A stretch of 64,000 nt of DNA from positions 1 to 64,000 of IMG/VR virus record IMGVR_UViG_3300049215_000227; one strand, given 5' to 3'. The notes below the pieces were generated by a model. That model saw nothing but the letters and a program-made list of their open reading frames with translations, was not told where the DNA came from and searched no databases. The position numbers and the translations under genes are program-made. The stretch is from a virus. Below are positions 13,764 through 45,617 of this stretch, piece by piece (the first letter of the stretch is position 1; the number at the start of each line of letters is the position of its first letter).

Positions 13764-13769
13764 GAAGGA

Positions 13770-13775
13770 ATTATA
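13770..13775 (-). promoter_or_regulatory. -10 box of leaderless tmk
   Basis: TATAAT on the minus strand followed by TCCTTC and then the ATG at 13763. Transcription normally begins 6-8 bases after the -10 box, which is the start codon itself. Confidence 0.6.
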
Positions 13776-13781
13776 CGTACG

Positions 13782-14249
13782 TTATCTCTTTGCTACGTTA
13801 GATAGGGTGAGGACGTTGGTGTTTTGAGCGGCATTCGTCCAGTCAGTTTGCTGGGTACTGCCTTGGCCTACAGCTGGAGCGATGTAACCAGAAGTAGCGA
13901 CGCCAGAAGTTCCACCTGCACCGGCCACAGCCTGAGAGCCAGAAATAGAGATCCATCCAGAACCATTAGAGTACGGCACTTGACCGCACTTGGTGCAAGC
14001 AGGATGGCTAGTGCCGCCCCAATTTTGGGGATAGTTGTGTCCAAGCCCGTCAGTACACGGATATTGAACTTGAAGAGATCCACCACCTATGAAAGGCTGA
14101 TATGGAACATTAACGATTCCTGGGTACACAAGTCGTTCGGCTTCCAACCTAGATACCTTACTTTCAAGCTCCTGGATGACAGCACCCTTCAACTGAAGGA
14201 GCTTCTCAAGAGCTTCGACTTGCTGCTCTAGAATCTCTTCCTTGGTCAT
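13782..14249 (-). CDS. Hypothetical coiled-coil protein with Cys pair
   Basis: 155 residues from ATG 14249. Residues 1-45 form a coiled-coil (KEEILEQQVEALEKLLQLKGAVIQELESKVSRLEAERL). The rest is Gly/Ser/Pro-rich with a C...HPACTKCGQVPYSNGSGW segment that could bind Zn. No family is recognised. It starts one base after the stop of the 55-residue hydrophobic protein, so the pair is probably co-translated. Position just downstream of the capsid gene suggests a virion protein. Confidence 0.6.
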   Translation of the reverse strand: MTKEEILEQQVEALEKLLQLKGAVIQELESKVSRLEAERLVYPGIVNVPYQPFIGGGSLQVQYPCTDGLGHNYPQNWGGTSHPACTKCGQVPYSNGSGWISISGSQAVAGAGGTSGVATSGYIAPAVGQGSTQQTDWTNAAQNTNVLTLSNVAKR

Positions 14250-14250
14250 G

Positions 14251-14418
14251 TTATCCCAAGATGTTGCGAACGACGTTTCCCACGAGATCAAGACCTAACT
14301 TGATAACGCCATGACCGAAGTATCCAACAAGGATACCAGCCAGAAGCGGGGAGAATCCGTACAGTTTTTGAGCCAAAGACTTCAATGTTGCCAAAGCGGC
14401 GAGTAGTTTTGCTTTCAT
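14251..14418 (-). CDS. 55-residue hydrophobic protein
   Basis: A short gene starting MKAKLLAALATLKSLAQ with a hydrophobic stretch (SPLLAGILVGYFGHGVIKLGLDLV) that could form one or two membrane or capsid-buried helices. The ATG lies exactly six bases after TATAAT, predicting a leaderless transcript that begins right after the capsid terminator. A holin-like membrane protein and a small capsid component are both possible. Frame, promoter and tight spacing to the next gene support it as real. Confidence 0.6.
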   Translation of the reverse strand: MKAKLLAALATLKSLAQKLYGFSPLLAGILVGYFGHGVIKLGLDLVGNVVRNILG

Positions 14419-14424
14419 ACAACC

Positions 14425-14430
14425 ATTATA
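14425..14430 (-). promoter_or_regulatory. -10 box of leaderless 55-residue gene
   Basis: Minus strand CCGGGTATAAT followed by GGTTGT and the ATG at 14418. The box directly follows the U-rich end of the capsid terminator, so the two control elements are stacked. Confidence 0.6.
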
Positions 14431-14474
14431 CCCGGAAAAGTGAAAGGGCCAGCATCTTGCGATGCCAGCCCTTT
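14431..14474 (-). terminator. Intrinsic terminator after major capsid gene
   Basis: On the minus strand AAAGGGC..GCATC pairs with GATGC..GCCCTTT (14443-14474) around a short loop, with a two-base mismatch, followed by a T-rich CACTTTTCC run. It is 30 bp past the capsid stop. Confidence 0.65.
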
Positions 14475-14504
14475 AAACTACGCTTTTATTGCGTTGGATG
14501 GAGC

Positions 14505-15950
14505 TTATTTACCGATGTTACGGAACAAGCAGTTGAAGCGTGGGGTGTACACGAACAACGCACCGTACATAACGATCGCGAACTCAAGAGCGGTCGTCAC
14601 AATCGCGAAGTTGATCTTCGAGAGAGGAGCGAGCTGCTTGAAGCGCATGCACTCAGCGCTCATATCGAGCAAGAATGCTTCGCCAAGTCCTGGGAGTTGA
14701 GCATTAGCACTGATGTAGTTACCTGCACCAGCGTTTGCCCAGTTACCAGCAAACTTCTCAGTTCCAGCAGCGCCGCCAGCAGCGGAGATGTAGAACTTCC
14801 AGTACTTAACGCCAGCAGGCACGGAACCGATTGCAACAGTGATGTTGCTTGCGGAAGCGAGCACGCAGTCAGCGGAAGATACTGGCGAAGATTCACCAGA
14901 GTCATTCACAGCCGTAACCTTCACCTTATAGGTACCAGCTGCGAAGCCAGATCCTGAACCAGCGGAGGTTGCAGTTGCCGTGAAGGTAGCTGCAGGGCTT
15001 TGCGCATTAACAGCAAGCGAGCGAACGCCGCTGCGAGGACGCAAGAAGAGGTTTGGCTTGAGGTCGATCGCGCCAGCGGTGGTTTGCACCTTGGACACGT
15101 CGTAGCCAACCGTTTGGTTAGCAAGACCAGGAGCCGAACGGAACTGAGGATAGAACTGCTTCACGAAGGCCGAGAGAGCGGCTGGTTCGATGTGCAACTG
15201 ATCCGGAGCGCCGAAGTTTTCAAGAGCGATAACAGCAAGACGTTCGATGTCGTCTTGAGCCATCACTTGACCAGCGAGGTCAGCCTGGATAGAGCTGGAG
15301 TCGCCATATCCAAGGAAGTCACCGGCTTGCATTTGAGCATCGGTGTCGCCCTTTTGGAGCTGCTTCAACAGACCGCTCATCGCGATGCTGTTCACTGGAA
15401 GGTCGGCATCAGAACCGGTTTCAGCGCCAGTGGACTGATTCATGAAGTGAGCATGACCCCAATAGAGCTCGCGCTCGATATTCTTGAGGAGATGCATCGT
15501 GCCTTCTTTTGCCTGTTGAGCAACGATGTCGCCAACAGTGACACGGACGAGAGTCATCTGGTGAGAGACCCTACGGCGAGTGCCGAAGAACACGATCTTC
15601 TGACCGTCACGTACGTAGGTCGAATCTTCCTCTTGAGGAGCTCCGCCTTCGCCGATGTACGGAACAGAATCAGAACCGTAGCTGATCAAACGGTTGTACT
15701 GTTCGAATAGGTTGTATGCTTTGTCAACCGAGATGGCTGGCCAGAACTTGAGGTTCTTCATGTCGAAGGTGATGCTCTTGAGGGTAGCCTCGAGAGATTC
15801 AGCCTGCAACACACCACCATAAGTGAGGTCAGTTGGCTTACCAGCACCACCGTAACCGGCGGTGATAGCCTTATTCAGTGACTCGATGTCCGATGCGGAA
15901 ACGAGACCCTGATCGAGGCCTTGCAAAACTTGATTAATTGCGTCGTTCAT
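14505..15950 (-). CDS. Major capsid protein (HK97 fold) with inserted domain
   Basis: 481 residues. It lies directly after the scaffold-like gene and before a terminator, the standard place. The N-terminal arm has AGYGGAG (31-37) and GGVLQAESL (45-53), blocks shared with the C-terminal part of the prohead protease. Residues about 60-170 (FWPAISVDKAYNLFEQYNRLISYG... KNIERELYWGHAHF) fit the E-loop and spine of HK97-type capsids. Residues about 320-420 form an Ig/FN3-like insertion (FAAGTYKVKVTAVNDSGESSPVSS), probably displayed on the surface. The end returns to the P and A domain. AAAGGAG lies upstream of the ATG. Confidence 0.9.
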   Translation of the reverse strand: MNDAINQVLQGLDQGLVSASDIESLNKAITAGYGGAGKPTDLTYGGVLQAESLEATLKSITFDMKNLKFWPAISVDKAYNLFEQYNRLISYGSDSVPYIGEGGAPQEEDSTYVRDGQKIVFFGTRRRVSHQMTLVRVTVGDIVAQQAKEGTMHLLKNIERELYWGHAHFMNQSTGAETGSDADLPVNSIAMSGLLKQLQKGDTDAQMQAGDFLGYGDSSSIQADLAGQVMAQDDIERLAVIALENFGAPDQLHIEPAALSAFVKQFYPQFRSAPGLANQTVGYDVSKVQTTAGAIDLKPNLFLRPRSGVRSLAVNAQSPAATFTATATSAGSGSGFAAGTYKVKVTAVNDSGESSPVSSADCVLASASNITVAIGSVPAGVKYWKFYISAAGGAAGTEKFAGNWANAGAGNYISANAQLPGLGEAFLLDMSAECMRFKQLAPLSKINFAIVTTALEFAIVMYGALFVYTPRFNCLFRNIGK

Positions 15951-15968
15951 TTTCGTTCTCTCCTTTGA

Positions 15969-16865: not shown

Positions 16866-16894
16866 GTTAACTCCTCGTTAAATGATAGACCCGA

Positions 16895-17290
16895 TTACTG
16901 TCCCATTCCAAGCAAATCAGCGTCGCCGCGTAGACGAGCAATCTGAGGATGCGTAGAATCTGCGATGATAATGTCGTTGGCCATGCCAGACATCATCTGA
17001 AGCACTTGTGCAGCAACAGCGCTATCAATAACGCCGCCGACCGTGCCAGCAGTACCAGCGCCAGTCAGAACGAGTTGTCCTGGGTTAGCGATGCCGATGC
17101 CAAGGTATGGAGAAACAGTAGGATCTACACCACCTTGAGGGGACTGAATCGATGCCAACTGATAGCTGATCGTGAGATCGTTCGAGCCGTTTTCAATAAC
17201 GACGGACGAAGCAGTCTGCGAGTTAACAGTAAGCCCAAGCACCTGCGCGTTGCGAGCGAGCTTGTTCATAATTGCAGTTACGTTTGCCAT
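16895..17290 (-). CDS. Small head-module protein, possibly decoration
   Basis: 131 residues, mostly Ala/Gly/Val with GVDPTVSPYLGIGIANPGQLVLTGAG and a helical AAQVLQMMSGMAND end. No family is recognised. It sits between the protease and scaffold-like genes, so it is likely a capsid decoration or core protein. It has its own promoter and a leader containing an 18-bp perfect palindrome next to the ribosome site. Confidence 0.6.
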   Translation of the reverse strand: MANVTAIMNKLARNAQVLGLTVNSQTASSVVIENGSNDLTISYQLASIQSPQGGVDPTVSPYLGIGIANPGQLVLTGAGTAGTVGGVIDSAVAAQVLQMMSGMANDIIIADSTHPQIARLRGDADLLGMGQ

Positions 17291-17300
17291 TTAGTTCTCC

Positions 17301-17318
17301 TTAACTTTCGAAAGTTAA
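17301..17318 (-). promoter_or_regulatory. 18-bp palindrome abutting the ribosome site
   Basis: TTAACTTTCGAAAGTTAA is a perfect palindrome. On the minus strand its last TTAA is continuous with the AAGGAG ribosome site of the gene at 16895. It could be an mRNA hairpin that hides or exposes that site, or a protein operator just after the promoter. Confidence 0.5.
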
Positions 17319-17333
17319 AACTTGATAGTACCT

Positions 17334-21327: not shown

Positions 21328-21475
21328 CAACCAGGATATGAAACTGGGTGGCGATATTAAGGGCTTGCTCCTCGTCTATGATGCTTAGACGATATAGAAC
21401 CTTAGTGAGCATCATAACGGACTCTCTACGTTCCTTAGTCAAGACCTCTCCTGTGTCCTGCCTAACGTAGATCAT
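21323..21475 (-). CDS. 50-residue hypothetical protein
   Basis: Starts at an ATG that overlaps the portal stop (ATGA). Sequence MIYVRQDTGEVLTKERRESVMMLTK... is helical and charged, ending in QFHILVV. The coupling with portal and lack of other content support a real small gene. No family is recognised. Confidence 0.5.
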   Translation of the reverse strand: MIYVRQDTGEVLTKERRESVMMLTKVLYRLSIIDEEQALNIATQFHILVV

Positions 21476-23445
21476 TCGTTGTCGAGCTTATTGATGGGAT
21501 TAGGCATTACCTTGCCGCCAATGTTGGCAGCCTTAGTGGCACCAAATTCCTTAGCAGCACTTTTAAGTCCATGCTGGACCGCGTCGCTGGCAGCCTTAGA
21601 CTTAATCTGCTCCATCTCAAGGTCATGCTTCTCTTTGTCACGCTCGTGCTTAGCTTCAGCGTGCTCATGCTTCTGCTGCTCTTGAGCCATCTTCATTTGC
21701 GCTTCTTGAGATGCAGCATCTTGCTGAGCGGCCATCTGCGCTTCCTGCTTCTTCACGTTATCGATGGTGAGAAGTAGTTGCTGCCAAGCCAAGAAAGCTT
21801 GATCGCCAGGAATGTATTGCAACTCTCTGCGTGAGGATGCGCCCTTATCGCCGAAGAAGAGTTCACGAATCTCGCCTCTCGTGTAGTTCTTCTCTACGAG
21901 TGCCCAGAACGCTTGGTTAAGCGGAAGGTCAGCAGCTGCCTCACCGATCTTCTCCTTCTGCGCCTGCTTGAGGAGGTCGTTCATCGTCTTCCAGACAGTC
22001 ATCTCCGCCTGCATCTGAGCAATCTCAGTTTGAGGCGTTTCCTCTGTCATTCCGGTGAAGACAAACTTGTACTTAGACGCTAGACTCTTATCGAGGGCAG
22101 GAAGAATGTCACAGTTAATGACATCCTCGATGAACATGAGAAGCGGAACGAGTCCACGCTCACGAGAGTAGGTAATCTTGTACTCGTTGGAAGCCTGCTG
22201 CATTGGAGCGCGTCCGTTGGACGAGATCAAGTAGTCAAGGCCAAGTTCAACCGGATCGATTTGGAACTGAGCGCAAAGGATACGCATCAGGTGGTTGTTG
22301 TAGTTGAGGTATTCCATCTCGCGAGCGTTCGCGGACATTGGAACCCATTGAACCTCATCGAGACCCGCAACGATTGGCGTTCTCCAAGCATTCTGGTGGC
22401 CAGTGATGCTGTTATAGAAGGTTCTACGGAAATTAGTTAGCTGTTGCTGAGTAACAGTACCTTTAAGGTGAAGAACACCGCGAGCAGCATAGCCATGCGT
22501 AAAAAAATTAGCGTTGTAATTTTCGACATTCAGGTGGTTCGTAATGTTGATAATTGCAAGCTCAAGAGGCGAATAGCAGTAGCCCATTGAGTCTGCAAAG
22601 TTTTGTGGGTTAAAAAGCTTAAAGATCATGTCCTCGTCGCCGAACGTGGCTAGGGGACGGTTGTCGTACGAAATCTGAACGTACTTGATAAAGTCGTTTT
22701 CAACCTCATTAACAACTTGATCTGCCTTAGGATCGTTATCGCTCTTAGGACGCGTGAGTTGATAATTCTTCATCGCGTTGGAGCTAACTTGCTCCTTCGA
22801 CAAAGCCTTATTGATGAGATAAATAGACTCAGCGGGAAGCGGACGAAATCTGTGCAGACCGCCGGCTCTAGTCTTAACCTTCTCAATAGCAACATGTCCG
22901 AACGTGAGAGCATCACGACCGATCACCTTCAAGAACTCTCCGAAGAGTTTCTTGTCGTCAGCTGGAGTACCTTCCTTGCGACCACAGTGGTAGAGAAAGT
23001 CCTCGATCTGTGCTATTTCCTGCTTCTCTTCGTCAGTGTAATGAGACTCAGAATCTTTCTTAACGATTCTATATCCCATCTCAAAGCGACGATGCTCAGG
23101 ACGCGAGAAGCGAACTAAGGTATCAACGCGGCACTGGATGATCGCGGAGATGAGCCAGTCACGAACAGAGACCTCTTTAAGAGTCTTGTTAGAGATGCGG
23201 GTAAGTTTAAATTTATAGTTGACCTGACTACCAATTAAGTCAAAGTACGGGTCGTCAACATATGCCTTGCGACCAATCTGCTTGCTAGCGTCATGATCTG
23301 TCTCCGGCACATCTGGAAGCTTATCTCCATCAGCTACTTCTGGAGTGCTAGGCGCAGCCGTAGGCGAAGAGATGCCATCAGCCTTAAGAAGCTCGTCAAT
23401 CTGCCCCTTAACCCTATTTTTAAGCCAATCGTCGTACCAAGCCAT
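21472..23445 (-). CDS. Portal protein
   Basis: 657 residues, located between terminase and protease as expected. The N-terminal part has DDPYFDLIGSQVNYKFK and EVSVRDWLISAIIQCRVDT. The clip and stem region has GLHRFRPLPAESIYLINK and DSMGYCYSPLELAIINITNHLNVENYN, typical of T4 gp20/SPP1-like portals. The last about 90 residues are a Gln/Lys/Glu coiled-coil (AQMKMAQEQQKHEHAEAKHERDKEKHDL). It forms the dodecameric DNA gate. The ATG is exactly six bases after TATAAT, so a leaderless mRNA is predicted. Confidence 0.9.
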   Translation of the reverse strand: MAWYDDWLKNRVKGQIDELLKADGISSPTAAPSTPEVADGDKLPDVPETDHDASKQIGRKAYVDDPYFDLIGSQVNYKFKLTRISNKTLKEVSVRDWLISAIIQCRVDTLVRFSRPEHRRFEMGYRIVKKDSESHYTDEEKQEIAQIEDFLYHCGRKEGTPADDKKLFGEFLKVIGRDALTFGHVAIEKVKTRAGGLHRFRPLPAESIYLINKALSKEQVSSNAMKNYQLTRPKSDNDPKADQVVNEVENDFIKYVQISYDNRPLATFGDEDMIFKLFNPQNFADSMGYCYSPLELAIINITNHLNVENYNANFFTHGYAARGVLHLKGTVTQQQLTNFRRTFYNSITGHQNAWRTPIVAGLDEVQWVPMSANAREMEYLNYNNHLMRILCAQFQIDPVELGLDYLISSNGRAPMQQASNEYKITYSRERGLVPLLMFIEDVINCDILPALDKSLASKYKFVFTGMTEETPQTEIAQMQAEMTVWKTMNDLLKQAQKEKIGEAAADLPLNQAFWALVEKNYTRGEIRELFFGDKGASSRRELQYIPGDQAFLAWQQLLLTIDNVKKQEAQMAAQQDAASQEAQMKMAQEQQKHEHAEAKHERDKEKHDLEMEQIKSKAASDAVQHGLKSAAKEFGATKAANIGGKVMPNPINKLDNE

Positions 23446-23451
23446 GCGATA

Positions 23452-23457
23452 ATTATA
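23452..23457 (-). promoter_or_regulatory. -10 box of leaderless portal gene
   Basis: Minus strand AGAAGGTATAAT followed by TATCGC and ATG. It lies in the short gap after the terminase stop. Confidence 0.6.
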
Positions 23458-26036: not shown

Positions 26037-26409
26037 ATAATTCTTCCCAGCAATCATTCTCTCTCACTATGGAGATGACCTGCTTTATCCTTATCTCGCT
26101 GATACCTTTATACCCGCTCACTTCGGTCACCGATAGACCTAGGGCTAACAAGCATATCACGGACTGCTCTATGTCGCTAAAGTTACTTAGCAACCTTTGA
26201 AACTTTTCTGAAGGTGGGTTATTAAATACGTGCCAGAGGAGGTGCGCGATCTCGCGATCGGCTGCGTACGCTTTATTTGACTTGTTTAAGTAAGCGACGA
26301 ATGAGGACGGAGGGTTTCCACTTAGATAGTGCACCCAGAGATCTTGTCTTTGATCTTCGTTATCAGTCAGACTGTTGATTAGGCTGCTGATCAGCTTCGC
26401 CGGATCCAC
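26008..26409 (-). CDS. HTH protein (sigma-4/LuxR-like)
   Basis: 133 residues from a GTG at 26409 with GGAG six bases upstream; a longer TTG start at 26448 is possible. The C-terminal half reads SDIEQSVICLLALGLSVTEVSGYKGISEIRIKQVISIVREN, a helix-turn-helix of the sigma region 4/LuxR type. It may regulate late transcription or take part in packaging, being just before the TerS-like gene. It overlaps both neighbours. Confidence 0.5.
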   Translation of the reverse strand: MDPAKLISSLINSLTDNEDQRQDLWVHYLSGNPPSSFVAYLNKSNKAYAADREIAHLLWHVFNNPPSEKFQRLLSNFSDIEQSVICLLALGLSVTEVSGYKGISEIRIKQVISIVRENDCWEELYGVKEKTHG

Positions 26410-26821
26410 CTTCGACTCCAATACTATCTGTATATGCGTCGAAGTCAACCAGCGTCATCTTTGCTATCCAATTTGGACCGCAAAAACCTTTGACAAAAGA
26501 ATCAAGCATCTGAAGGAAGTCTAAACTTCCTTCTTTCTTCAAGAAGCGCTTGAATCTCCACAGGCCGAACAGCGACTTAGCAGTGGAGAGCTTCTTGTAA
26601 GTATCGACCTTCTTGAGGAGGTCCTTATTGATGTAAATAACATAATCAACAACCTTATCCTCAGGACGGATCTTAACTTCTACGGCTTGTACGTCCGTAT
26701 GAACAATTGAACCATAGAAGAACAACTGGTTCTTGACAGAATCCGGCACGAGACCGTTGTTTAACAACCATCTCTGCGTATCTACCATATCTGTAAGAGA
26801 AAGTCTCTCTTGCTGATCCAT
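26363..26821 (-). CDS. Hypothetical protein
   Basis: 152 residues. A small domain (VHTDVQAVEVKIRPEDKVVDYVIYINKDLLKKV) is followed by helices (SLFGLWRFKRFLKK) and a Gln/Gly/Ser tail ending QQPNQQSD. No family is recognised. It has its own promoter and a good AAGGAG site, and opens the packaging gene run toward TerL. Confidence 0.6.
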   Translation of the reverse strand: MDQQERLSLTDMVDTQRWLLNNGLVPDSVKNQLFFYGSIVHTDVQAVEVKIRPEDKVVDYVIYINKDLLKKVDTYKKLSTAKSLFGLWRFKRFLKKEGSLDFLQMLDSFVKGFCGPNWIAKMTLVDFDAYTDSIGVEGGSGEADQQPNQQSD

Positions 26822-26854
26822 TGTTACTCCTTGGTGCTATCCACCATTAAAACT

Positions 26855-26860
26855 ATTATA
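26855..26860 (-). promoter_or_regulatory. -10 box for the packaging genes
   Basis: Minus strand CCTGGTATAATAG, about 33 bases before the ATG at 26821, with an ordinary leader holding AAGGAG. It is a contrast case to the leaderless promoters. Confidence 0.55.
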
Positions 26861-26875
26861 CCAGGTGGATAACTC

Positions 26876-32249: not shown

Positions 32250-35200
32250 CTATTCAACTCTTTCGATTTCGTCAATCTGTAAGCTTACCGGAGTCTTCCA
32301 ACCCGGCTTTAGCTTGCCTCGAACATAAACGATAGTGTTCTTTTCCCATCCAAGGGCAGCAGTGCGATTCCAATCGGTGCACTCAAGCGTGGCGTATCCG
32401 TCAGAAAGATAAACTGCAACCTTAGACCAAGGTCTGCCGCTCTTCTTAGAGACTCCCTTGGAGAAAGAGGAAGATTCAAACAGAAGGATCATCCCGACTT
32501 CCTTGTCGAAGTTCTTCTTGATCAAGCCCTCTGCAACCTTAATGTTCGATAGGATAGGGGTATCGCCCATCATAAGCGGAACGCCCGATCTTCCCGTGTC
32601 GTTAAGTGCTGGCCACTTACTCTTGATAACGTTGACGATACCTGAGTCAGACAACAGGTTCTTATTGAACGCCTGGTTGTGCTCCTTCTCCATCAAGAAG
32701 ACAGATAGAGGATCAACGTTGAACACATCTGGCTGCAACTTGATCTCCTTGCCTCTCAACTTCTTATATTCCTCGATGAAGGCAAGACGTCGCTGACTGT
32801 AGTCTTGGATGCTCAAATCCATCATGTCGTCAGCAGCTCTTCCCTTGATGAGGTACGAGATACCGCCAGAGTTCACCTTAGCGTGGTCAATTCTCTTTAC
32901 AAAGTCCTCTAAGGTTGGGAATGGTCCCTTCGAGCACAACTCCCTAACGACCGCGGGACCAACACCCTTGATAGCCGAAAGCGGCGTGACGATGAATCTC
33001 TCCCCGTTGATCTCGCGAACAGCGAACTTGTCCGTCGGATACTTGAGAGATGGTGGTCTTACCAAACTGCCAAGCTTCGCCATGTAGTGGCGAGTCTTAG
33101 CCTCATCGTCGATGTGCACGTTGAGAACGGATGCCCACCACTCTAGCGGATGGTGATGCTTCAAGTACATCGTGATATAACCCAACTCGCTGTACGCGTA
33201 GGAGTGAGACTTGTTGAACGAGTAGCGAGAGAAGGCCTGAATCTGCTTACAGATAGTCTCGATCGCGTCGTTATCCCAGCCTCTCTCACGGCAAGACTTA
33301 CGAATCTTGTCGTAGGTCGCCATAATTACGTCCTGCTTCTTCTTAGCGATAGCACCACGAATAAGGTCAGATTGCTCCCAGCTGTAACCCGCAACTTCCA
33401 CCAGGAATCGCATGACTTCTTCCTGATAGACGAAGACCCCGTAGCTATCCTTCAAGATTGGCTCTAGATCAGGGTGTAAGTATTCCTGCGTTCTGACGCC
33501 ATTCTTGACGTCCATGTAGTATTGGGCGGCCGTCGTGTCGTACAGCGGAGCGTCAAGAGCACCTGGACGAGCCACAGCGGTGAAGTCCATCAGATCCTTG
33601 CGTCGCGTAGGGCAGAACTCTTGGACCATCCCTTTGATGAGTTCAGTGTTGTACTGAAACGACGAGTCCGTATCCTTGTTGTAGAAGTCAGCGTAGATGG
33701 ACTCATCTTCTGGCAGACGGTAGATGAGCGGAACACCGTTGAGCTCTTCCAGGTAGTCAATCTTGCCTTTCAAGAGTTGAACGCAGTCAGAGACGGCCGT
33801 CAGCGTCTTGATTCCGAGGATGTCAGCTTTAACAAGACCGCACTTCTCAACCATCGCCGCGTCATACTGCGTGCAGATGATGTCTCCGAGCGCCTTATCT
33901 TTCATCACCATAGTTGGAACGCGATCTGCCGCTAGATCCAAAGTGGAGATAACGAACGCTGACGCATGTCGAGACCAGCCGCGAATCGTTCCGATGAGCT
34001 TCTTCACCATCTTCTCGACGTCTGGATACGCCGCAAAGAAGTTGGCTAGATTCTTGTTCAACTCTACCTGGCCAGGGTTATAGTTGCCTTCCTGGTCTGT
34101 AAAGCCATACAAGAAGTCATGCTCGTCGTGAATCTCTTGCGGCGAGTCGGGAATAGAGTCGCAGATGGCCTTAACTTCTGGATCGTTACGATTCCTGCCG
34201 TACAAGGCGAACATCGCGTCCTTGATGGCGTTCTTCGTCTTCATCCGTTGAAAAGTAGCGATCTGAGCGAATCCAGCCTTATACTTGTTGCGCAAGTAAT
34301 CCATGATGAGCGCTCTTGCGCGGTCACCGATGTCGGCGTCAATGTCTGGAAAAGATCCAGCTCTAATACGAGCATGAGACAAGAAGCGTTCGAAAGGCAG
34401 GTTGGCCTTGATAGGATCAACATGAATGATCTTTAGGTAATAGCTGATTAGAGACCCGCCAGCAGAACCGCGGGCGATATTCTGAAGAATGCCCTGTGAG
34501 CGAGCAAACCTGCCGATATCCTCATACACCAAGAAGTACGGAATGAAGTTCAGCTTCTCATTCTTCATGATGACGTCAAGTTCTTGCTTGAACCTGGCGA
34601 CATAGACCGGGTCGTCATTCCAGCGGCCATGCTGCTGGATCAACTCCATCATGTAATAATAAGTTTGTCGATCATAATCAGGAGTCTTAGCTTGGATGTG
34701 CTCTGGGATGTCGATTCGTGGCAGGTGGTAGTCAAACGAAACCCTGATATCTTTCGCGCTATTTGCCACTTCAAAAGTGTTCTCGATCCATTGGCTAAAT
34801 CGTTCCTCGCTAAGCCATTCGCCAAGATGCGCTCTGAGTTTGTCATACATCTGCTCCGCTCTAAGTTGGTGATAGGACTCATAGAAGTACCAGCCGTTTG
34901 AGTTACCGTTCTTCAAGAGACAATCTTGGATGATCTTGTCTTCTGGCATGATGAAGTGGGCATCCGTAACCGGAATGCACTTTCCACCGTGCTTATCAAT
35001 CATGTCCTTCAGGAACAGATTGTAGTGCTTCTGCTTATTACCGTCGCAAGAGCACTCGTCACCTGGGATTGGGTCAAAACCCCCAGTTTGCTTATTAAAG
35101 TTATGAGTGACATCGTTGCAGTGAAACTCGACGTACAGCTCATCTCCAAAGAGCTCTCTGTACATGAGGAATCGCTCTTCGGCGAGAGCACGATCGTTAT

Positions 35201-35810
35201 TCCAAAACGCTTGGCCAATAGGTCCTGCGATGCATCCTGTGCCAAACTTAATCCCCTTCTTATATTGCTTAATCTGGTCGAACGTGACGCGGGCCTTAAC
35301 AGAGCCGAAGTACGAGACTGTATCGCCGTAAGCCAATGACGACAGCTTCATGAGGTTATGGTATCCCTCTGTGCTCGCGGCCCAAGCAGTGATGTGATAA
35401 TGGCTCTTATCTTCTGCGTTTAGCTTAACGTACAGCTCAACTGCGGGAATGAGAGTTACGGCATCTGTTTTGTACGGCGTATACGAGGCGTTAACATACG
35501 CGTCAATGGCAGCCTTATTATCTTTCTGCCACTTCTTCTTGAACTCTAGCGTTGGCTCCAACGTGTTGATATTTTCTTCAGTGTACTTCTCAACAAGTTC
35601 CTCGGTCTTATTCTTGTTGTAGTTCTCGATGAACGTCTTGCACTTAAGTGCGTCAAACATCGAGATGGCCGTACCGTGATCGGTGATTGCAAGAGCCGGA
35701 GTACCAGACTCTAAGCACCATCCAACCCACTCTTCAGGTGAAGGGACTGCGTCTAGCAGAGAATACTTTGAATGATTATGAAGCTGTGCTGGTTCCTTGA
35801 AACGAGGCAT
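32250..35810 (-). CDS. dnaE: DNA polymerase III alpha subunit (DnaE-type)
   Basis: 1186 residues from ATG 35810. The PHP domain starts with LHNHSKYSLLDAV. The catalytic part has GSAGGSLISYYLKIIHVDP and FPDIDADIGDRAR (the PDIDAD acidic pair). Then come the fingers (YSFNKSHSYAYSELGY), a tandem HhH region (IKGVGPAVVRELCSKGPF) and an OB-fold end. It is the replicative polymerase of this phage. The separate DEDD exonuclease at 12297 may proofread for it. The ATG is exactly six bases after TATAAT. It ends in TAG. Confidence 0.95.
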   Translation of the reverse strand: MPRFKEPAQLHNHSKYSLLDAVPSPEEWVGWCLESGTPALAITDHGTAISMFDALKCKTFIENYNKNKTEELVEKYTEENINTLEPTLEFKKKWQKDNKAAIDAYVNASYTPYKTDAVTLIPAVELYVKLNAEDKSHYHITAWAASTEGYHNLMKLSSLAYGDTVSYFGSVKARVTFDQIKQYKKGIKFGTGCIAGPIGQAFWNNDRALAEERFLMYRELFGDELYVEFHCNDVTHNFNKQTGGFDPIPGDECSCDGNKQKHYNLFLKDMIDKHGGKCIPVTDAHFIMPEDKIIQDCLLKNGNSNGWYFYESYHQLRAEQMYDKLRAHLGEWLSEERFSQWIENTFEVANSAKDIRVSFDYHLPRIDIPEHIQAKTPDYDRQTYYYMMELIQQHGRWNDDPVYVARFKQELDVIMKNEKLNFIPYFLVYEDIGRFARSQGILQNIARGSAGGSLISYYLKIIHVDPIKANLPFERFLSHARIRAGSFPDIDADIGDRARALIMDYLRNKYKAGFAQIATFQRMKTKNAIKDAMFALYGRNRNDPEVKAICDSIPDSPQEIHDEHDFLYGFTDQEGNYNPGQVELNKNLANFFAAYPDVEKMVKKLIGTIRGWSRHASAFVISTLDLAADRVPTMVMKDKALGDIICTQYDAAMVEKCGLVKADILGIKTLTAVSDCVQLLKGKIDYLEELNGVPLIYRLPEDESIYADFYNKDTDSSFQYNTELIKGMVQEFCPTRRKDLMDFTAVARPGALDAPLYDTTAAQYYMDVKNGVRTQEYLHPDLEPILKDSYGVFVYQEEVMRFLVEVAGYSWEQSDLIRGAIAKKKQDVIMATYDKIRKSCRERGWDNDAIETICKQIQAFSRYSFNKSHSYAYSELGYITMYLKHHHPLEWWASVLNVHIDDEAKTRHYMAKLGSLVRPPSLKYPTDKFAVREINGERFIVTPLSAIKGVGPAVVRELCSKGPFPTLEDFVKRIDHAKVNSGGISYLIKGRAADDMMDLSIQDYSQRRLAFIEEYKKLRGKEIKLQPDVFNVDPLSVFLMEKEHNQAFNKNLLSDSGIVNVIKSKWPALNDTGRSGVPLMMGDTPILSNIKVAEGLIKKNFDKEVGMILLFESSSFSKGVSKKSGRPWSKVAVYLSDGYATLECTDWNRTAALGWEKNTIVYVRGKLKPGWKTPVSLQIDEIERVE

Positions 35811-35816: not shown

Positions 35817-35822
35817 ATTATA
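35817..35822 (-). promoter_or_regulatory. -10 box of leaderless dnaE
   Basis: Minus strand TTTGTATAAT, then GCTGAC, then ATG 35810. A terminator for the gene upstream ends just before this box, so dnaE needs its own promoter. Confidence 0.65.
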
Positions 35823-35857
35823 CAAAAGAAAAGGGACGCAGTTTTTACGTGCGTCCC
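35823..35857 (-). terminator. Intrinsic terminator before dnaE
   Basis: Minus strand GGGACGCA (35850-35857) pairs perfectly with TGCGTCCC (35833-35840) around a nine-base loop and is followed by CTTTTCTTTTG. It closes the transcript of the gene at 35888. Confidence 0.8.
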
Positions 35858-35887
35858 CGTTCAGTAATACAGTTTTATTGAGTTAGA

Positions 35888-37040: not shown

Positions 37041-37583
37041 CTAGAGTAATTTTTCTTTTAGCTTCTTGGCTCTTTCTACAATCTCTTCCAGTCCCTTGGT
37101 CTTCTTCTTGGCGATATATTTTGCCAGCTGCTTCTTCAACAGTTTGAGGTCAGAAGGAGGTGAGAGCTCTAACTGATTAAGTTCTTCCGTGTATTGCTTT
37201 AATAAGCGCGCAATGCGTTCAGCGTAGGTTTTCTTGTCGTGGCAGTCGTCGCAGATGCGCTGGAGGTTGGACTTATCGCACCATAGACGCTTTAAGAAGA
37301 GTGTTATTCTATCCCAGATGTCAAAGTGAGGAGGAAAACCTTCCGGCGGAACAACAGGATCGATATGGTCGATAGCTATCTTGGTGCTGCTAACCCAGCT
37401 GCTGCACACCTCGCACTGACGCTTTACCCACGGACGCTTAGCAAGCGTGCCATCCTTTTTATATCTGGGAAACTCCTGGCGAGACTCATTGAGTTTCTCA
37501 ATGACCAATGGACTTCTAGCAAAAAGACGCCTGTTGGCACCTCTGATAGCCATCTCTTGATTGAATGGAGGTTTCTTCTTCAC
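37041..37583 (-). CDS. HNH endonuclease
   Basis: 180 residues. It has CEVCSSWV, KIAIDHIDPVV (the HNH strand with His-Asp-His) and NLQRICDDCHDKKTY, i.e. two Cys pairs binding Zn around a beta-beta-alpha metal site. The C-terminal third is a coiled-coil. It could be a homing enzyme or a late nuclease helping packaging. Start is a GTG exactly six bases after TATAAC, again with no room for a ribosome site. It ends in TAG. Confidence 0.8.
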   Translation of the reverse strand: MKKKPPFNQEMAIRGANRRLFARSPLVIEKLNESRQEFPRYKKDGTLAKRPWVKRQCEVCSSWVSSTKIAIDHIDPVVPPEGFPPHFDIWDRITLFLKRLWCDKSNLQRICDDCHDKKTYAERIARLLKQYTEELNQLELSPPSDLKLLKKQLAKYIAKKKTKGLEEIVERAKKLKEKLL

Positions 37584-37589: not shown

Positions 37590-37595
37590 GTTATA
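37590..37595 (-). promoter_or_regulatory. -10 box of leaderless HNH gene
   Basis: Minus strand TTCGGTATAAC followed by TTCTTA and GTG 37583. It overlaps the last codons of the gene upstream. Confidence 0.5.
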
Positions 37596-38157: not shown

Positions 38158-38163
38158 ATTTTA
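38158..38163 (-). promoter_or_regulatory. -10 box of leaderless Zn-finger gene
   Basis: Minus strand CCTGGTAAAAT followed by TAGGTT and ATG 38151. The extended TGG is kept though one base of the box differs. Confidence 0.5.
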
Positions 38164-41360: not shown

Positions 41361-41361
41361 A

Positions 41362-43089
41362 TTACTCCTGGCCGACCAATCCGCTCTCAGGATTCATCAT
41401 GTCGCGGAAGGCCTGCTTGCTCAACGCAAGCTGATTTTCCAAGCCAAAGTCACGAGGGACAACCACGATGCCTCCGAGTGTAATCAACAGAGAAGCAACA
41501 GAGAGTGCGTTACCCAAGCTAACTCTGCAAACCTTAGCAGGTTCAATGATACCTGCCTCTTCTGGATCTACTATACGATGGGCATTCGCATCAAAGATGA
41601 ACTTAGGCGGCTCTTGCTTGTCAACGACAAACTGTTCCAAGGCGTTCCAGATGTCTCCAAAGTCCTCACCGCAGTTAGAAAGAAGCATCTCAAATGGAGC
41701 TCTGAGAGCCTTAACCATGATGTCCCACGAGAGGACATGATCAGGATGCTTGGCGATGATGTCAGAGAGAACTAGATGAACTCCACAGCCGCCAGGAACA
41801 ATGCCTTCAGCAATAGCGGAGCGAACAGCCTCAACAGCGTCCTCAACGCGAGCTTTCTTCTCGCGAGCCTCAAGCTCAGAGCCGCCGCCGACCCAGATGG
41901 TCGACACGCCGCCGGTAAGCTTGCTGATGGCGGCCTTCGCGAACATGCGCTCGCGGTCACTAGGAGCTACTTGCATGATTGACTTAAGCTCAGCGATACG
42001 AGCCTCGATCTTCTCGTGATCCACGTTGCTGGTCAAGAACGTCTCGAACATGTTCACCTTTGCATTCTCAAAGAATCCAAATGAATCCTCAAGATTCTCG
42101 TCCGTGATGTAATGATCGATCGTTCCAGCATCCACAACGGTAGCGCCGGTGTACGCAGCCATGTCGTATAAGAACATTGAGCGGGAGTTTGCCACGCCGC
42201 CAAGCGGTGTCTTAACTGGAACTACTGAGTATCCGCCCTTCGTGGTCTTAGCAAACTTGTCAAGCACGACGTCAGAGAAGCCGTGAGCAAACACGATGAT
42301 AGGCTTACCGTAGAGTTCAGTGCCCTCAACAGCTTGCTGGATCGCGGCAGGAACCTTGAGGTCATTCACCGTGCCGTCAAACAGAACGACAACGCCATTA
42401 TCCATCTTCGCTTGCTGAGCCGAGCGATCGTTGATGAACGCCAGGCCGATAGAACCAATGTCCTTCAGACCGGTCGTGACGATGCAGCCGTCGATCGTCT
42501 CTACGCGGATGTCCTCTGCGTCTGCTTCCTCAATGAGAACCTGGCCATCTTCGCCAGCAGCGATAACCGCGTCGACAGCTGCGGTAGCAATTGCAGAGTC
42601 TCCGTTGGCAGAAATAGTGGCAACATTAATAAGCTCATGACGCTCCTTCACAGGTTTTGCATGCTGCTTTAGGAATGGGGTGATAACCTTGCTGTAACAA
42701 TCGTTAAGCTCGTTAACCATTCTTTGGGGGTTGTATTTAGGATTTGCCTCTAGAAACGCAAGTCCGTGATTCGTAATTGCTGAAGCAAGAACAATAGCCG
42801 TAGTTGTGCCATCTCCCGCTTGCTTAGCTGTCCTGAGACAAATCTCTTTAGCAGACTCGATAATGATGTTAGCCTCTGCGTTTGCGACTCCGAGAGTTTT
42901 TGCAACTGTAACTCCGTCCTTCGTTACGAGTGGAGACAGACCGTCACGCTCAAGAATGACCGGACGACCACCTGGTCCAAGGGTTGCGCCAACGACGTTA
43001 GCCATCTCGTTGATGGTTTCGCTGACAACCTTGCGGATCTTTGCCCTATCTGCCGTAATGCTCTTTGCTTTGCTCTTCTCGTAAATCAT
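41362..43089 (-). CDS. groEL: GroEL-like chaperonin
   Basis: 575 residues, close to bacterial GroEL (about 550). The equatorial ATP site is intact: VVGATLGPGGRPVILE, VTKDGVTVAKTL and QAGDGTTTAIVLA. An apical domain and the C-terminal GGIVVVPRDFGLENQLALSKQAF follow. It lacks the Gly-Gly-Met tail typical of bacterial GroEL. It probably folds virion or replication proteins with either host or no GroES. No GroES-like gene is next to it. It overlaps the gene before by one base. Confidence 0.93.
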   Translation of the reverse strand: MIYEKSKAKSITADRAKIRKVVSETINEMANVVGATLGPGGRPVILERDGLSPLVTKDGVTVAKTLGVANAEANIIIESAKEICLRTAKQAGDGTTTAIVLASAITNHGLAFLEANPKYNPQRMVNELNDCYSKVITPFLKQHAKPVKERHELINVATISANGDSAIATAAVDAVIAAGEDGQVLIEEADAEDIRVETIDGCIVTTGLKDIGSIGLAFINDRSAQQAKMDNGVVVLFDGTVNDLKVPAAIQQAVEGTELYGKPIIVFAHGFSDVVLDKFAKTTKGGYSVVPVKTPLGGVANSRSMFLYDMAAYTGATVVDAGTIDHYITDENLEDSFGFFENAKVNMFETFLTSNVDHEKIEARIAELKSIMQVAPSDRERMFAKAAISKLTGGVSTIWVGGGSELEAREKKARVEDAVEAVRSAIAEGIVPGGCGVHLVLSDIIAKHPDHVLSWDIMVKALRAPFEMLLSNCGEDFGDIWNALEQFVVDKQEPPKFIFDANAHRIVDPEEAGIIEPAKVCRVSLGNALSVASLLITLGGIVVVPRDFGLENQLALSKQAFRDMMNPESGLVGQE

Positions 43090-43661
43090 TACTCAATTCT
43101 CTCCGTAATTCCGCCCTCTTCCACGAACACATTCTTCATGTTATTCTTAACATACGTCGATCCCTTTTGGGACAGAGTTACGTAAGAGATAACTAAGAAG
43201 TCAGGTTCCGGTCTATCTGGCGGATATATCTTCAATATACTAAAAGGTACCAATGCAGCTCTAGTAAATCCCATATCTGCCACATGATTTACTGAGTTAA
43301 TAACTCTATTGATAGCTACATCTAGCTTCTCTATGCCTGCTCTAGCAACTGCAAAATGAACTAAATCTGCCTTACGAACATAAAGTTGATCAGCATCGAT
43401 GTCTTTGTAATACTCGCAGCTTTTTAAGTTCAACTTACCGAGCAAGCGAAGCCACTCTGGAAGCTTCTCGTTGTACTGATGCACTAGATGCTCAGTTTTG
43501 TTTTCAAGCGCCTTGATAGCCTTCTCGTTAAAGTAGCCCTTAAAGATTGGATAGATGTCTGTCATCTCAAAGCCGGGCATAACCGTTACCGGTTGACCCT
43601 CTTTGTCGGCGTTACCGCTTTTTATTAGTGCGTCGATTGCTAGCGCGATGTCTGACGGCAT
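43089..43661 (-). CDS. Hypothetical protein
   Basis: 190 residues. Helical (IALAIDALIKSGNADKEG, FKGYFNEKAIKALENKTEHLVHQYNEKLPEWLRLLGKL) then beta-like FLVISYVTLSQKGSTYVKNN. No family is recognised. AAGGA lies before the ATG, which is 50 bp inside the methylase-like gene. Direct linkage to groEL could mean a substrate or partner, but this is a guess. Confidence 0.55.
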   Translation of the reverse strand: MPSDIALAIDALIKSGNADKEGQPVTVMPGFEMTDIYPIFKGYFNEKAIKALENKTEHLVHQYNEKLPEWLRLLGKLNLKSCEYYKDIDADQLYVRKADLVHFAVARAGIEKLDVAINRVINSVNHVADMGFTRAALVPFSILKIYPPDRPEPDFLVISYVTLSQKGSTYVKNNMKNVFVEEGGITERIE

Positions 43662-44358
43662 TGTCCATTTCCTTATTGTATTCTTTTACCACCTTCTCGT
43701 ACTTCTTAATCTGCTTCGAGTCGTTGTCAAAGCCAAAGAAGCTGTGACCAAGCTTAAGAGCGGCCTTCAATGAGCCAGTACCTCCGCAATAAGGATCGAA
43801 TATGACGGACCCAGGAAGACAGTCAGTCATTCTGATTAAAAGTTCTGCTAACTCAACTGGATATGCTTCATCAAGTGAGCCAGTCTCAACCTCCCAGGTG
43901 TTACCTGGACAAGAGGTCTCGTCGTCAGTATGGAGATACTCGCGGATAGGAAGGCGATCTAATTTCCAGACATCGCCGTTGCAGAAGTGAAGAACATACT
44001 CGTGAGAGTTGACTAAGTTAGTTTCAGAGCGCTTGCCAGGAAACCAAGTCTTCTTGATTATGATGTTGTCGACGTGAGTGAAACCAGCGTCAGCCATCAT
44101 CTTGGCTATCTCAAACGGACGCCACTTAGCCTCGATGGGAGCGTAGCAGATGAGAAACACTATCCCGTTGGGGACCATGTGGTTCTTGAGTTTAGCAGCA
44201 AACTCCTTGAACTTAACAGGATCAAAGCCGTCTCGCTTCCTGATTGGAATTCGAGTGATGCAGACTTCAGTATTCTTAGGCCAGATCGCATCAGAACTCA
44301 TGGCATCCATGTTGTTGATGCGTACGTTTGTTTGAAAGATGTTTGAGAGGTTATCCAA
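43612..44358 (-). CDS. DNA methyltransferase-like protein lacking DPPY
   Basis: 248 residues. The C-terminal SAM-binding motif is clear: VIFDPYCGGTGSLKAALKLGHSFFGFDND. The part that normally carries the DPPY/NPPY catalytic motif reads VCITRIPIRKRDG, without the Asp/Asn-Pro-Pro-Tyr/Phe/Trp. So it may be inactive, or use an altered motif. The start is a TTG at 44358 with AGGAG nine bases upstream; a later ATG (44307) is possible. A restriction-evasion role is plausible if active. Confidence 0.65.
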   Translation of the reverse strand: MDNLSNIFQTNVRINNMDAMSSDAIWPKNTEVCITRIPIRKRDGFDPVKFKEFAAKLKNHMVPNGIVFLICYAPIEAKWRPFEIAKMMADAGFTHVDNIIIKKTWFPGKRSETNLVNSHEYVLHFCNGDVWKLDRLPIREYLHTDDETSCPGNTWEVETGSLDEAYPVELAELLIRMTDCLPGSVIFDPYCGGTGSLKAALKLGHSFFGFDNDSKQIKKYEKVVKEYNKEMDNAVRHRASNRRTNKKR

Positions 44359-44360
44359 GT

Positions 44361-44386
44361 GCCAATGCTCCTAACGGAGCATTATA
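44361..44386 (-). promoter_or_regulatory. -10 box and leader hairpin of the methylase-like gene
   Basis: Minus strand GTATAATG (TATAAT at 44381-44386) is followed at once by ATGCTCC...GGAGCAT, a seven-bp hairpin with a four-base loop. The 3' arm contains GGAG, the probable ribosome site of the TTG start. Pairing would hide it. Confidence 0.5.
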
Positions 44387-44387
44387 C

Positions 44388-44840
44388 TTACTCACTCAAC
44401 TTTTGATCGATTAGCTCGGTCATGCCGGCACTATATTCTCTCCAGGCATGCTTCTTGAGTTCCACTATAAAGTCATCTAAGTCAAGAAAATAGTACTCTA
44501 GTGTAAAGGTAAAGATAGGTACTGGTCTAGTAGGATCAAGAGTTTGACGTTGCTCGACTCTTTTAGGTCTATACTGCTCGCTGATGGTTGCCTTCCGCAT
44601 CATGTCCATGCTAGATAGGTAAAGACTCTTAGTGATACCATCACGATGCAAGGCGACCTCGACAACGAGAGTGTACATCGCAGGTCCTAAGGTAGTTTGG
44701 ACTGGACCTGCTGAGCCGACAGACCACATTTGGTCGATATCTTGGTCACGTCGGAGATCAAACGAAACTGCATACCCGTCAAACAGAGTGTGCAGATTAT
44801 CGCCTAATTCTTTAAACTGATTAGCAATATCGCTAGACAT
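44388..44840 (-). CDS. Hypothetical protein
   Basis: 150 residues from ATG 44840, which overlaps the dUTPase stop (TGATG). A helical start (NQFKELGDNLHTLFDGYAV), then beta segments (YTLVVEVALHRDGIT, VPIFTFTLEYYFLDLDDFIVELKKH). No family is recognised. Co-translated with dUTPase. Confidence 0.55.
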   Translation of the reverse strand: MSSDIANQFKELGDNLHTLFDGYAVSFDLRRDQDIDQMWSVGSAGPVQTTLGPAMYTLVVEVALHRDGITKSLYLSSMDMMRKATISEQYRPKRVEQRQTLDPTRPVPIFTFTLEYYFLDLDDFIVELKKHAWREYSAGMTELIDQKLSE

Positions 44841-45358
44841 CAAGTCTTGCCGGTGCTGCCAAATCCGCCCGCACCGCGAGAAGTATTCGCGTCGACGGTC
44901 TCGACCTGCTCGATGTAAAACTCGGACGAGTAGGGATTCATGATGAACTGGGCAAGCTTCTCGCCCTTCTTGATGACGATCGGATTGACACGCATGAGAG
45001 GATAGCCGTCTGGACCAATCTCCTGCATAACCCAGATGTTAGACATGACGACGTGCGGGATGCCGCGATACTCCTCGTCGATGACGCCAGCATAAACAAG
45101 CAGACCTTGAGCACCCAACCCAGATTTTGAGGTGATCTCACCCCAAGTTCCCTTAGGGAGCTTCATCTTTATGTTAAGCGGGTGCTTCATCACTTGCCCT
45201 GGGTAGATCGTAATATCTTCCGTTGCAAACAGATCAAAACCGGCGTCAGTCGGATTCTTCTTGGCAGGCAGCTTGCCGCCTTGCAGAACCTCAACCTCAA
45301 TCTTGAAGTAGTCTTGTTTAAGTTTATTGAGCAACTCGATCTTCTTGTTTTCGTCCAT
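44840..45358 (-). CDS. dut: dUTPase
   Basis: 172 residues. All five trimeric dUTPase motifs are visible: DAGFDLFA, SKSGLGAQG, GVIDEEYRG, KGEKLAQFI and the C-terminal RGAGGFGSTG arm. It hydrolyses dUTP to dUMP and PPi, limiting uracil in DNA and supplying dUMP. The ATG at 45358 is exactly six bases after TATAAA, so the mRNA is predicted to be leaderless; a longer start is not needed. Confidence 0.92.
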   Translation of the reverse strand: MDENKKIELLNKLKQDYFKIEVEVLQGGKLPAKKNPTDAGFDLFATEDITIYPGQVMKHPLNIKMKLPKGTWGEITSKSGLGAQGLLVYAGVIDEEYRGIPHVVMSNIWVMQEIGPDGYPLMRVNPIVIKKGEKLAQFIMNPYSSEFYIEQVETVDANTSRGAGGFGSTGKT

Positions 45359-45364
45359 GGTATC

Positions 45365-45370
45365 TTTATA
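45365..45370 (-). promoter_or_regulatory. -10 box of leaderless dut
   Basis: Minus strand TTTGTATAAA, then GATACC, then ATG 45358. It opens leftward transcription from a divergent region. Confidence 0.55.
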
Positions 45371-45506
45371 CAAAATGCACAACTTAAGGTCCAGAAAAAA
45401 TTTTCAACACTGAGTTAAAAAGTGCATTGTCGCGGGTACTATAGAGATTGTCCTATCCAAACTCGTCTATTCTATCTATTCCCCTAGAAAGTTAAGCGAT
45501 CGCTCT

Positions 45507-45548
45507 CGCGCGCAAGCGCGCGGAGTTCGCTCTTCTTCGAAGAGCGAA
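45507..45548. promoter_or_regulatory. Twin perfect hairpins in divergent region
   Basis: CGCGCGC-AA-GCGCGCG (45507-45522) is followed at three bases by TTCGCTCTTC-TTC-GAAGAGCGAA (45526-45548), a ten-bp perfect stem. They lie between dut (left) and the gene at 45618 (right) in a roughly 260-bp gap with no other gene. They are not followed by T runs, so they are not simple terminators. Candidate replication origin, protein-binding site or attenuator. Confidence 0.6.
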
Positions 45549-45605
45549 GATGAGCCATAGAATTTTTCATTCAGGAGTTTGAAGGGCTGCCTACCAAACC
45601 CTTGA

Positions 45606-45611
45606 TACAAT
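45606..45611 (+). promoter_or_regulatory. -10 box of leaderless rightward gene
   Basis: TTGATACAATGGTCTT then ATG 45618: TACAAT is exactly six bases before the start. TTGAAG, about 20 bases upstream, could serve as a -35. Confidence 0.5.
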
Positions 45612-45617
45612 GGTCTT

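What the first reader, a model, noticed from the sequence alone, without database searches (positions are those of the whole stretch)
13764..45617. Eight genes with exactly six bases between -10 box and start: predicted leaderless mRNAs
tmk, the 55-residue gene, portal, dnaE, the HNH gene at 37041, the Zn-finger gene at 37591, dut and the plus-strand gene at 45618 all have a TATAAT-like hexamer, six bases, then ATG or GTG (boxes at 13770, 14425, 23452, 35817, 37590, 38158, 45365 and 45606). Lysozyme has seven and two others ten. Initiation 6-8 bases after the box would fall on the start codon, and no AGGAGG is present. Other genes in the window have ordinary leaders with ribosome sites, so both modes coexist. 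Exact spacing in eight places is hard to explain by chance and suggests selection for leaderless translation.
Basis: partly seen in the sequence, partly recalled or inferred. Interest (0 to 1): 0.85.

Follow-up and report, generated by a model that had tools for sequence, protein, structure and literature searches.

The report
Leaderless gene starts conserved across phages
In this large uncultivated bacterial virus and its relatives, many genes have their transcription signal exactly six bases before the start codon, so the messenger RNA is predicted to begin at the start codon with no leader; the arrangement is conserved and far beyond chance, although the mechanism is already known from some bacteria and a few phages.

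Summary
In the window, 9 of 72 called genes have a TATAAT-like box (at most 1 mismatch) exactly six bases from the start, against 0.54 per other spacing (p 7e-9). Over the 176.5-kb record it is 19 against 1.6 (p 2e-14). ATGs inside genes show nothing.

Relatives in IMG/VR keep the arrangement. dnaE (13 of 15 boxed upstreams), portal (26 of 41), tmk and two neighbouring genes hold six bases while the six bases themselves change freely. In tmk the start codon moved two codons relative to the homologous frame and the box moved with it.

Genes with the near box lack Shine-Dalgarno matches (23%); genes with TATAAT 12-40 bases upstream have them (91%). Both sets use the same G-TATAAT motif without a -35 element, so only box-to-start distance differs. 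No sigma factor was found.

Best explanation: host-sigma, -10-only promoters start transcription on the start codon, giving leaderless mRNAs. No 5' ends were mapped and the host is unknown. Leaderless genes are known in bacteria and some phages; here a whole phage lineage is predicted to use them for replication, packaging, nucleotide and lysis genes.

The parts
13770..13775 (-). -10 box TATAAT, six bases before ATG of tmk (13104-13763)
   Evidence: Pfam thymidylate kinase; box-N6-ATG kept in four orthologs although the start lies two codons further in
13104..13763 (-). tmk, predicted leaderless gene
   Evidence: PF02223, 1.7e-22
14425..14430 (-). -10 box TATAAT, six bases before ATG of the 55-residue gene
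   Evidence: same spacing in the ortholog in G009
14251..14418 (-). 55-residue hydrophobic protein, predicted leaderless gene
   Evidence: sequence; no family match
23452..23457 (-). -10 box TATAAT, six bases before ATG of portal
   Evidence: 26 of 41 distinct orthologs at >=63% identity have exactly six bases
21472..23445 (-). portal protein, predicted leaderless gene
   Evidence: PF04860, 3.1e-17
35817..35822 (-). -10 box TATAAT, six bases before ATG of dnaE
35832..35858 (-). terminator-like hairpin and T tract running straight into the dnaE promoter
   Evidence: -20.5 kcal/mol, z -5.3; a palindrome and T tract at the same place in most close orthologs
32250..35810 (-). dnaE, DNA polymerase III alpha, predicted leaderless gene
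   Evidence: PF07733, 1.4e-50
37590..37595 (-). box TATAAC, six bases before GTG of the HNH gene; overlaps the stop codon of the upstream gene
   Evidence: orthologs TATAAT + 6-8 + GTG/ATG
37041..37583 (-). HNH endonuclease gene, GTG start, predicted leaderless
   Evidence: phrog_1985, 8.5e-15
38158..38163 (-). box TAAAAT, six bases before ATG of the Zn-finger-like gene
   Evidence: conserved at 6-10 bases down to about 38% identity
37591..38151 (-). 186-aa protein with CPHC..HVHKC Zn-finger-like motif, predicted leaderless gene
   Evidence: no Pfam or PHROG match
45365..45370 (-). box TATAAA, six bases before ATG of dut
   Evidence: mixed conservation: G008 keeps TATAAA + six, G002 has a leader with GGAG
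44840..45358 (-). dut, predicted leaderless gene
   Evidence: PF00692, 3.5e-24
45606..45611 (+). box TACAAT, six bases before ATG of the plus-strand gene
   Evidence: two orthologs with similar boxes
45618..46355 (+). 245-aa protein of unknown family, predicted leaderless gene
   Evidence: no Pfam; no PHROG
   Evidence: TAGAAT/TACAAT + six in four orthologs, and TATCAT + six in a fifth
48621..50012 (-). DNA helicase, predicted leaderless gene
   Evidence: phrog_16, 8e-63
48343..48348 (-). box TATAAT, seven bases before ATG of lysozyme (47802-48335)
11483..11488 (-). contrast: TATAAT 28 bases before ATG of gene 11086-11454, with AGGAG in between (ordinary leader, conserved in relatives)

Best explanation
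These are -10-only promoters of the host housekeeping-sigma type, consensus (T)(G)G-TATAAT, set so that RNA synthesis starts on the first base of the start codon or within one or two bases of it. The mRNAs are leaderless and would be translated by 70S ribosomes binding a 5'-terminal AUG (GUG in the HNH gene), without a Shine-Dalgarno contact. The same promoter type placed 20-35 bases upstream serves other genes with an ordinary SD leader, so the phage chooses the translation mode gene by gene through box-to-start distance. Shown here: peaked spacing, its conservation, absence of SD, shared promoter motif. Inferred: position of the transcript 5' end, translation of the leaderless RNA, use of host sigma.
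For: Peak at six bases with p 7e-9 (window) and 2e-14 (record); the same peak in relatives G001 (17 vs 2.6), G002 (8 vs 0.8) and G017 (24 vs 2.7). Pooled relatives without G004: 44 TATAAT-N6-ATG against 0-10 at other spacings from 0 to 25. Length is conserved, not sequence: 24 distinct six-base spacers among 26 portal orthologs, mean identity 0.33; dnaE spacer identity 0.45. tmk: box and start keep their distance although the start differs by two codons. The HNH gene keeps box + 6-8 + GTG/ATG in many lineages, including some where the box no longer overlaps the upstream stop codon. SD matches of 4 or more bases: near-box genes 5 of 22, TATAAT-far genes 10 of 11, shuffled 38%; in G017 5 of 26 against 172 of 227. 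Leaderless and leadered promoters share the G before TATAAT (60 of 80 and 29 of 39), and neither has a -35 hexamer above control. Independent calibration: the -10 box lies 6-7 bases before the 5' end of a tRNA-Met in G000 and G001, and six before tRNA-Ile in G000. No sigma factor over cut-off in three genomes.
Against: No transcript was mapped. The host is unknown, so its promoter consensus and its tolerance of leaderless mRNA are unknown. Portal has a conserved AAGG 12 bases from its ATG, and by the simple SD test 36 of 41 portal orthologs count as SD-bearing, although that stretch lies upstream of the predicted 5' end. Four of the eight boxes have one mismatch. The HNH box overlaps the coding end of the upstream gene in this genome. 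dut is leadered in one relative and the dnaE arrangement is absent from more distant relatives. The gene caller is home-made.
Confidence: 0.87

Rival explanations
1. The boxes are real promoters, but transcription starts a few bases upstream or further down, or the genes are mainly translated from longer read-through mRNAs that carry an SD (for portal the AAGG before the box). The short distance only reflects compact packing of promoters against genes.
For: Portal AAGG is conserved; genes are densely packed and several near-box genes lie only 6-34 bases from the upstream gene.
Against: Compact packing alone predicts a range of short spacings, not a spike at six with almost none at 0-5 and few at 7-10. 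SD matches are depleted below the shuffled level. tRNA promoters give the same 6-7 base offset to an RNA 5' end.
Confidence: 0.09
2. A phage-encoded or phage-modified transcription factor reads a composite TATAAT-N6-ATG element that has nothing to do with leaderless translation.
For: The family is distant from studied phages, so unknown factors are possible; the hexamer is preceded by a preferred G.
Against: No sigma factor domain over cut-off in G000, G001 or G017. The same box occurs without a start codon at that distance in leadered genes and before tRNAs. The six bases are not conserved.
Confidence: 0.03
3. Chance matches in an AT-rich genome, chosen by the reader after the fact.
For: Half of the eight boxes are imperfect; hexamers with one mismatch are common.
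Against: p 7e-9 in the window and 2e-14 in the record; internal-ATG and shuffle controls near zero; independent repetition and ortholog conservation in relatives.
Confidence: 0.01

Closest known systems
Leaderless genes with a TA-like (-10) signal in bacteria (Zheng et al. 2011, PMC3160421), strongest in Deinococcus-Thermus and Actinobacteria
   Same: A -10 box immediately upstream of the start codon replaces the SD; the paper gives the distance as 8-14 bases from the second base of the box, and six bases from the box end falls inside that range; medium-GC genomes show TAtaaT as here.
   Different: There it is a property of cellular genomes; here of a phage lineage whose host is unknown, with the spacing sharply at six.
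-10 region adjacent to ORFs in Deinococcus-Thermus (Zhong et al. 2025, PMC12340547)
   Same: A -10 motif without need for a -35, a set distance to the ORF, leaderless mRNA; tested experimentally there.
   Different: TANNNT motif in high-GC bacteria; the word phage does not occur in that paper.
Thermus phage P23-45 middle and late extended -10 promoters (cited in PMC7403470; original study Berdygulova et al. 2011 not held, its leaderless transcripts recalled from memory)
   Same: Promoters of the extended -10 class serving phage genes; in its sequence three genes have TATTAT + six + ATG, one right after a palindrome.
   Different: Unrelated small phage of Thermus; only 3 of 112 called genes show the strict signal; a sigma-region-4 inhibitor (gp39) drives the promoter choice there, which was not looked for here.
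Lambda cI and other single leaderless phage mRNAs (reviewed in PMC9031893)
   Same: Phage mRNA starting at AUG, translated by 70S ribosomes.
   Different: Isolated regulatory genes, not a genome-wide mode for replication, packaging and lysis genes.
Myxococcus phage Mx1 (OR576727), closest cultured relative by portal, terminase and GroEL (29-34% identity)
   Same: Similar genome size and gene content; possible weak TAnnnT enrichment at six (7 vs 2.1, p 0.006).
   Different: No TATAAT near-start signal; portal and dnaE starts have no clear box.

Membership tests
Bacterial-type leaderless gene (TA-signal class) | -10-like hexamer at a fixed distance that puts the transcription start on the start codon | tested here: met
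   conserved in orthologs
Bacterial-type leaderless gene (TA-signal class) | no Shine-Dalgarno in the would-be leader | tested here: met
   5 of 22 near-box genes, below the shuffled 38%; portal AAGG lies upstream of the predicted 5' end
Bacterial-type leaderless gene (TA-signal class) | transcript 5' end at the start codon (0-5 nt leader) | not testable with these tools
   needs 5'-end mapping in infected cells; only indirect calibration from tRNA 5' ends
Bacterial-type leaderless gene (TA-signal class) | protein made from the 5'-terminal start codon | not testable with these tools
   needs ribosome profiling or N-terminal proteomics
Extended -10 / -10-only promoters (P23-45 middle/late type) | no -35 element | tested here: met
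   best TTGACA match in near and far sets no better than control
Extended -10 / -10-only promoters (P23-45 middle/late type) | TGn before the -10 hexamer | tested here: inconclusive
   T 40/80, G 40/80, G 60/80 at the three positions; the G directly before TATAAT is the stronger feature
Extended -10 / -10-only promoters (P23-45 middle/late type) | phage sigma-region-4 inhibitor that disables -35-dependent promoters | not tested
   no search made
Phage-sigma-dependent promoters (SPO1 type) | phage-encoded sigma factor | tested here: not met
   no match over cut-off for PF04542 or PF04545 in three genomes; one sub-threshold partial PF04545 match in G017

The most novel reading that the evidence does not exclude
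The phage lineage runs a dedicated leaderless-translation programme and supports it with its own initiator-type tRNA: G000 and G001 carry a tRNA-Met (besides an elongator tRNA-Met) with the C1-A72 mismatch and A11-U24 pair of initiators, from a promoter whose box is 6-7 bases from the tRNA 5' end. A review (PMC9031893) states that extra initiator tRNA strongly favours leaderless over canonical mRNAs.
Probability: 0.07. Interest if true: 0.85.

Novelty: new member of a known kind. Interest (0 to 1): 0.55.

Why it matters
Leaderless translation in phages has mostly been known from single genes. A clade of large phages that encodes DNA polymerase, portal, helicase, nucleotide enzymes and lysozyme behind leaderless-type promoters, most of them conserved, next to conserved SD-led genes with the same promoter motif, is a natural experiment on why a gene is leaderless. 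It also means that gene finders relying on SD signals may misplace starts in such phages, and that the unknown host must translate leaderless AUG, and probably GUG, mRNAs well.

Tried and rejected
Reassigned TAG: two CTA-anticodon tRNAs suggested recoding, but frames after TAG stay open no longer than after TAA or TGA, so TAG looks like an ordinary stop. Phage sigma factor and phage IF3: no match over cut-off. -35 difference between leaderless and leadered promoters: none. Initiator tRNA as driver of leaderless use: present in G000 and G001, but not found among the five tRNAs of G017, which has the strongest leaderless signal, while leadered G018 has an initiator-like tRNA, so the link is not supported. 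Host: portal relatives in two MAG contigs labelled Saprospiraceae and Flavobacteriaceae are probably binned phage contigs; Bacteroidota promoters differ from TATAAT (from memory), so no host is claimed. DNA-level search of dnaE in phages found nothing. The P23-45 paper was not held. A contig scan for the tRNA-Met promoter found only G001.

Full report
WHAT WAS CHECKED. The window is bases 1-64000 of a 176,504-base IMG/VR virus record. The rest of the record was fetched in stretches. A simple codon-usage gene caller gave 270 genes covering 89%; 72 lie in the window. The gene names hold up where families exist: thymidylate kinase, portal, DnaE, HNH, dUTPase, lysozyme and helicase. The 'Zn-finger' gene has no family match but carries CPHC..HVHKC.

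OBSERVATION. All eight boxes are at the stated places and six bases from the start; four are perfect TATAAT and four have one mismatch. A ninth case (helicase, TAGAAT, start at 50012) was missed. Without gene calls, TATAAT-N(k)-ATG on both strands of the whole record gives 11 at k=6, 5 at k=7 and 0-3 elsewhere; the reversed pattern gives none. With gene calls, spacing six holds 9 of 72 window genes against 0.54 per other spacing, p 7e-9, and 19 in the whole record against 1.63, p 2e-14. Shuffled upstreams give about 1 and 2092 ATGs inside genes give about 0.4 (scaled) where 14 are observed.

RELATIVES. dnaE finds 37 relatives and portal 80 in IMG/VR. Close dnaE relatives (about 71-85% identity) mostly have a palindrome, a T tract, then TTTGTATAAT, six bases and ATG; more distant ones have SD leaders or no box. 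Of 15 distinct dnaE upstreams with a box, 13 have six bases. Of 41 distinct portal upstreams at 63% identity or more, 26 have six, three have seven and two have eight; below 60% identity none has six, the box where found lies 11-32 bases away, and all 14 have an SD match. The six bases are nearly unconserved (portal identity 0.33, 24 distinct of 26), so length, not sequence, is kept. In tmk the start codon sits two codons further in relative to the homologous frame and the box has shifted with it. The HNH gene, which starts with GTG here, keeps box + 6-8 + GTG/ATG in many lineages; in this genome its box overlaps the upstream stop codon, but in G001 it does not, so coding constraint does not explain it. 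Genome-wide the peak recurs in G001, G002 and G017, and pooled relatives show 44 at six against 0-10 elsewhere. G018, from the leadered clade, has no peak at six and many boxes at 15-19.

HOW IT WORKS. In standard sigma-70 geometry (established knowledge) the -10 hexamer occupies -12 to -7, so six bases after it comes +1; a six-base spacer puts +1 on the start codon. This is supported without reference to translation by tRNA genes: in G000 and G001 a -10 box precedes a tRNA-Met by seven and six bases, and tRNA-Ile(TAT) in G000 by six. SD matches of four or more bases occur in 5 of 22 near-box genes, 10 of 11 far-box genes and 62% of the remainder. Both promoter groups share the G before TATAAT and lack a -35 element above background. 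Gene 11086 shows the opposite choice, kept in most of its relatives: the same box, about 28 bases, AGGAG, start codon. So one promoter type is used in two ways, and distance decides between leaderless and SD-led translation. No sigma factor or IF3 gene was found, so host RNA polymerase is the likely reader. Translation by 70S ribosomes from a 5'-terminal AUG is taken from the literature on leaderless mRNAs (PMC9031893), not shown here.

WEAK POINTS. No 5' ends were mapped. The host is unknown: the nearest cultured phage, Myxococcus phage Mx1, is at 29-34% identity and shows at most a weak TAnnnT signal at six. Portal has a conserved AAGG next to its box, which could act as a distant SD on a longer read-through mRNA. 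dut is leadered in one relative. Starts were called by a home-made program, although the gene-free count does not depend on it. The dnaE and portal series include related sequences, so the ortholog counts are not independent events.

KNOWN OR NEW. The mechanism is known: leaderless genes with a -10 box at this distance are widespread in Deinococcus-Thermus and Actinobacteria (PMC3160421) and have been tested in Deinococcus (PMC12340547). In phages, lambda cI is the textbook case, and Thermus phage P23-45 uses extended -10 middle and late promoters (PMC7403470); its sequence shows three TATTAT-N6-ATG genes. What is new is the scale and conservation in a lineage of large uncultivated phages, across replication, packaging, nucleotide and lysis genes, with conserved leadered genes beside them. 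The literature search was limited to the held open-access library, so earlier reports in phages may have been missed. The verdict is a new member of a known kind, with good evidence.

Noticed in passing
46344-46418 and 46424-46499 (-): Two adjacent tRNAs with CTA anticodon (amber-suppressor type), with counterparts in G001, G002 and G017, although TAG is used as a stop in 42 of 270 genes and frames are no longer open after TAG than after TAA or TGA.
   Followed up: partly
L012:1164-1242 (record 125164-125242): tRNA-Met with initiator-type C1-A72 mismatch and A11-U24 pair (GGG/CCC stem only partly kept), besides an elongator tRNA-Met; its -10 box is seven bases from the tRNA 5' end, six in G001.
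   Followed up: partly
L013:8277 onward (record about 152277, + strand): A 27-residue open frame MNTQLLTNRNSLRAFSSSNASFYSLFN directly behind ACACGTGGTATAAT + six bases, with a similar 28-residue peptide behind the same promoter in G001: a possible leaderless micropeptide near the tRNA cluster.
   Followed up: partly
26822-26861 (-), upstream of gene 26363-26821: Leader with GGTG..CACC inverted repeat just before the SD, with a box and similar repeat in several relatives; a short frame ATG GTG GAT AGC ACC AAG GAG TAA starts seven bases after the box and overlaps the SD in this genome.
   Followed up: partly
35823-35858 (-): Terminator-like hairpin and T tract run directly into the dnaE promoter in most close relatives, so termination and a leaderless start share about 60 bases.
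   Followed up: partly
L080, L202-L204 (Myxococcus phage Mx1): Seven genes with TAnnnT six bases before ATG (p 0.006), some preceded by GTAGATC-like sequences: possible leaderless starts in the closest cultured relative.
   Followed up: no
L081 and L082: Portal relatives on contigs binned into Saprospiraceae and Flavobacteriaceae MAGs; L082 (30% GC) has six TATAAT-N6-ATG in 18 kb.
   Followed up: no
41362-43089 (-): Phage-encoded GroEL-like chaperonin (PF00118, 3e-44), nearest in phages to Mx1 at 34%.
   Followed up: no
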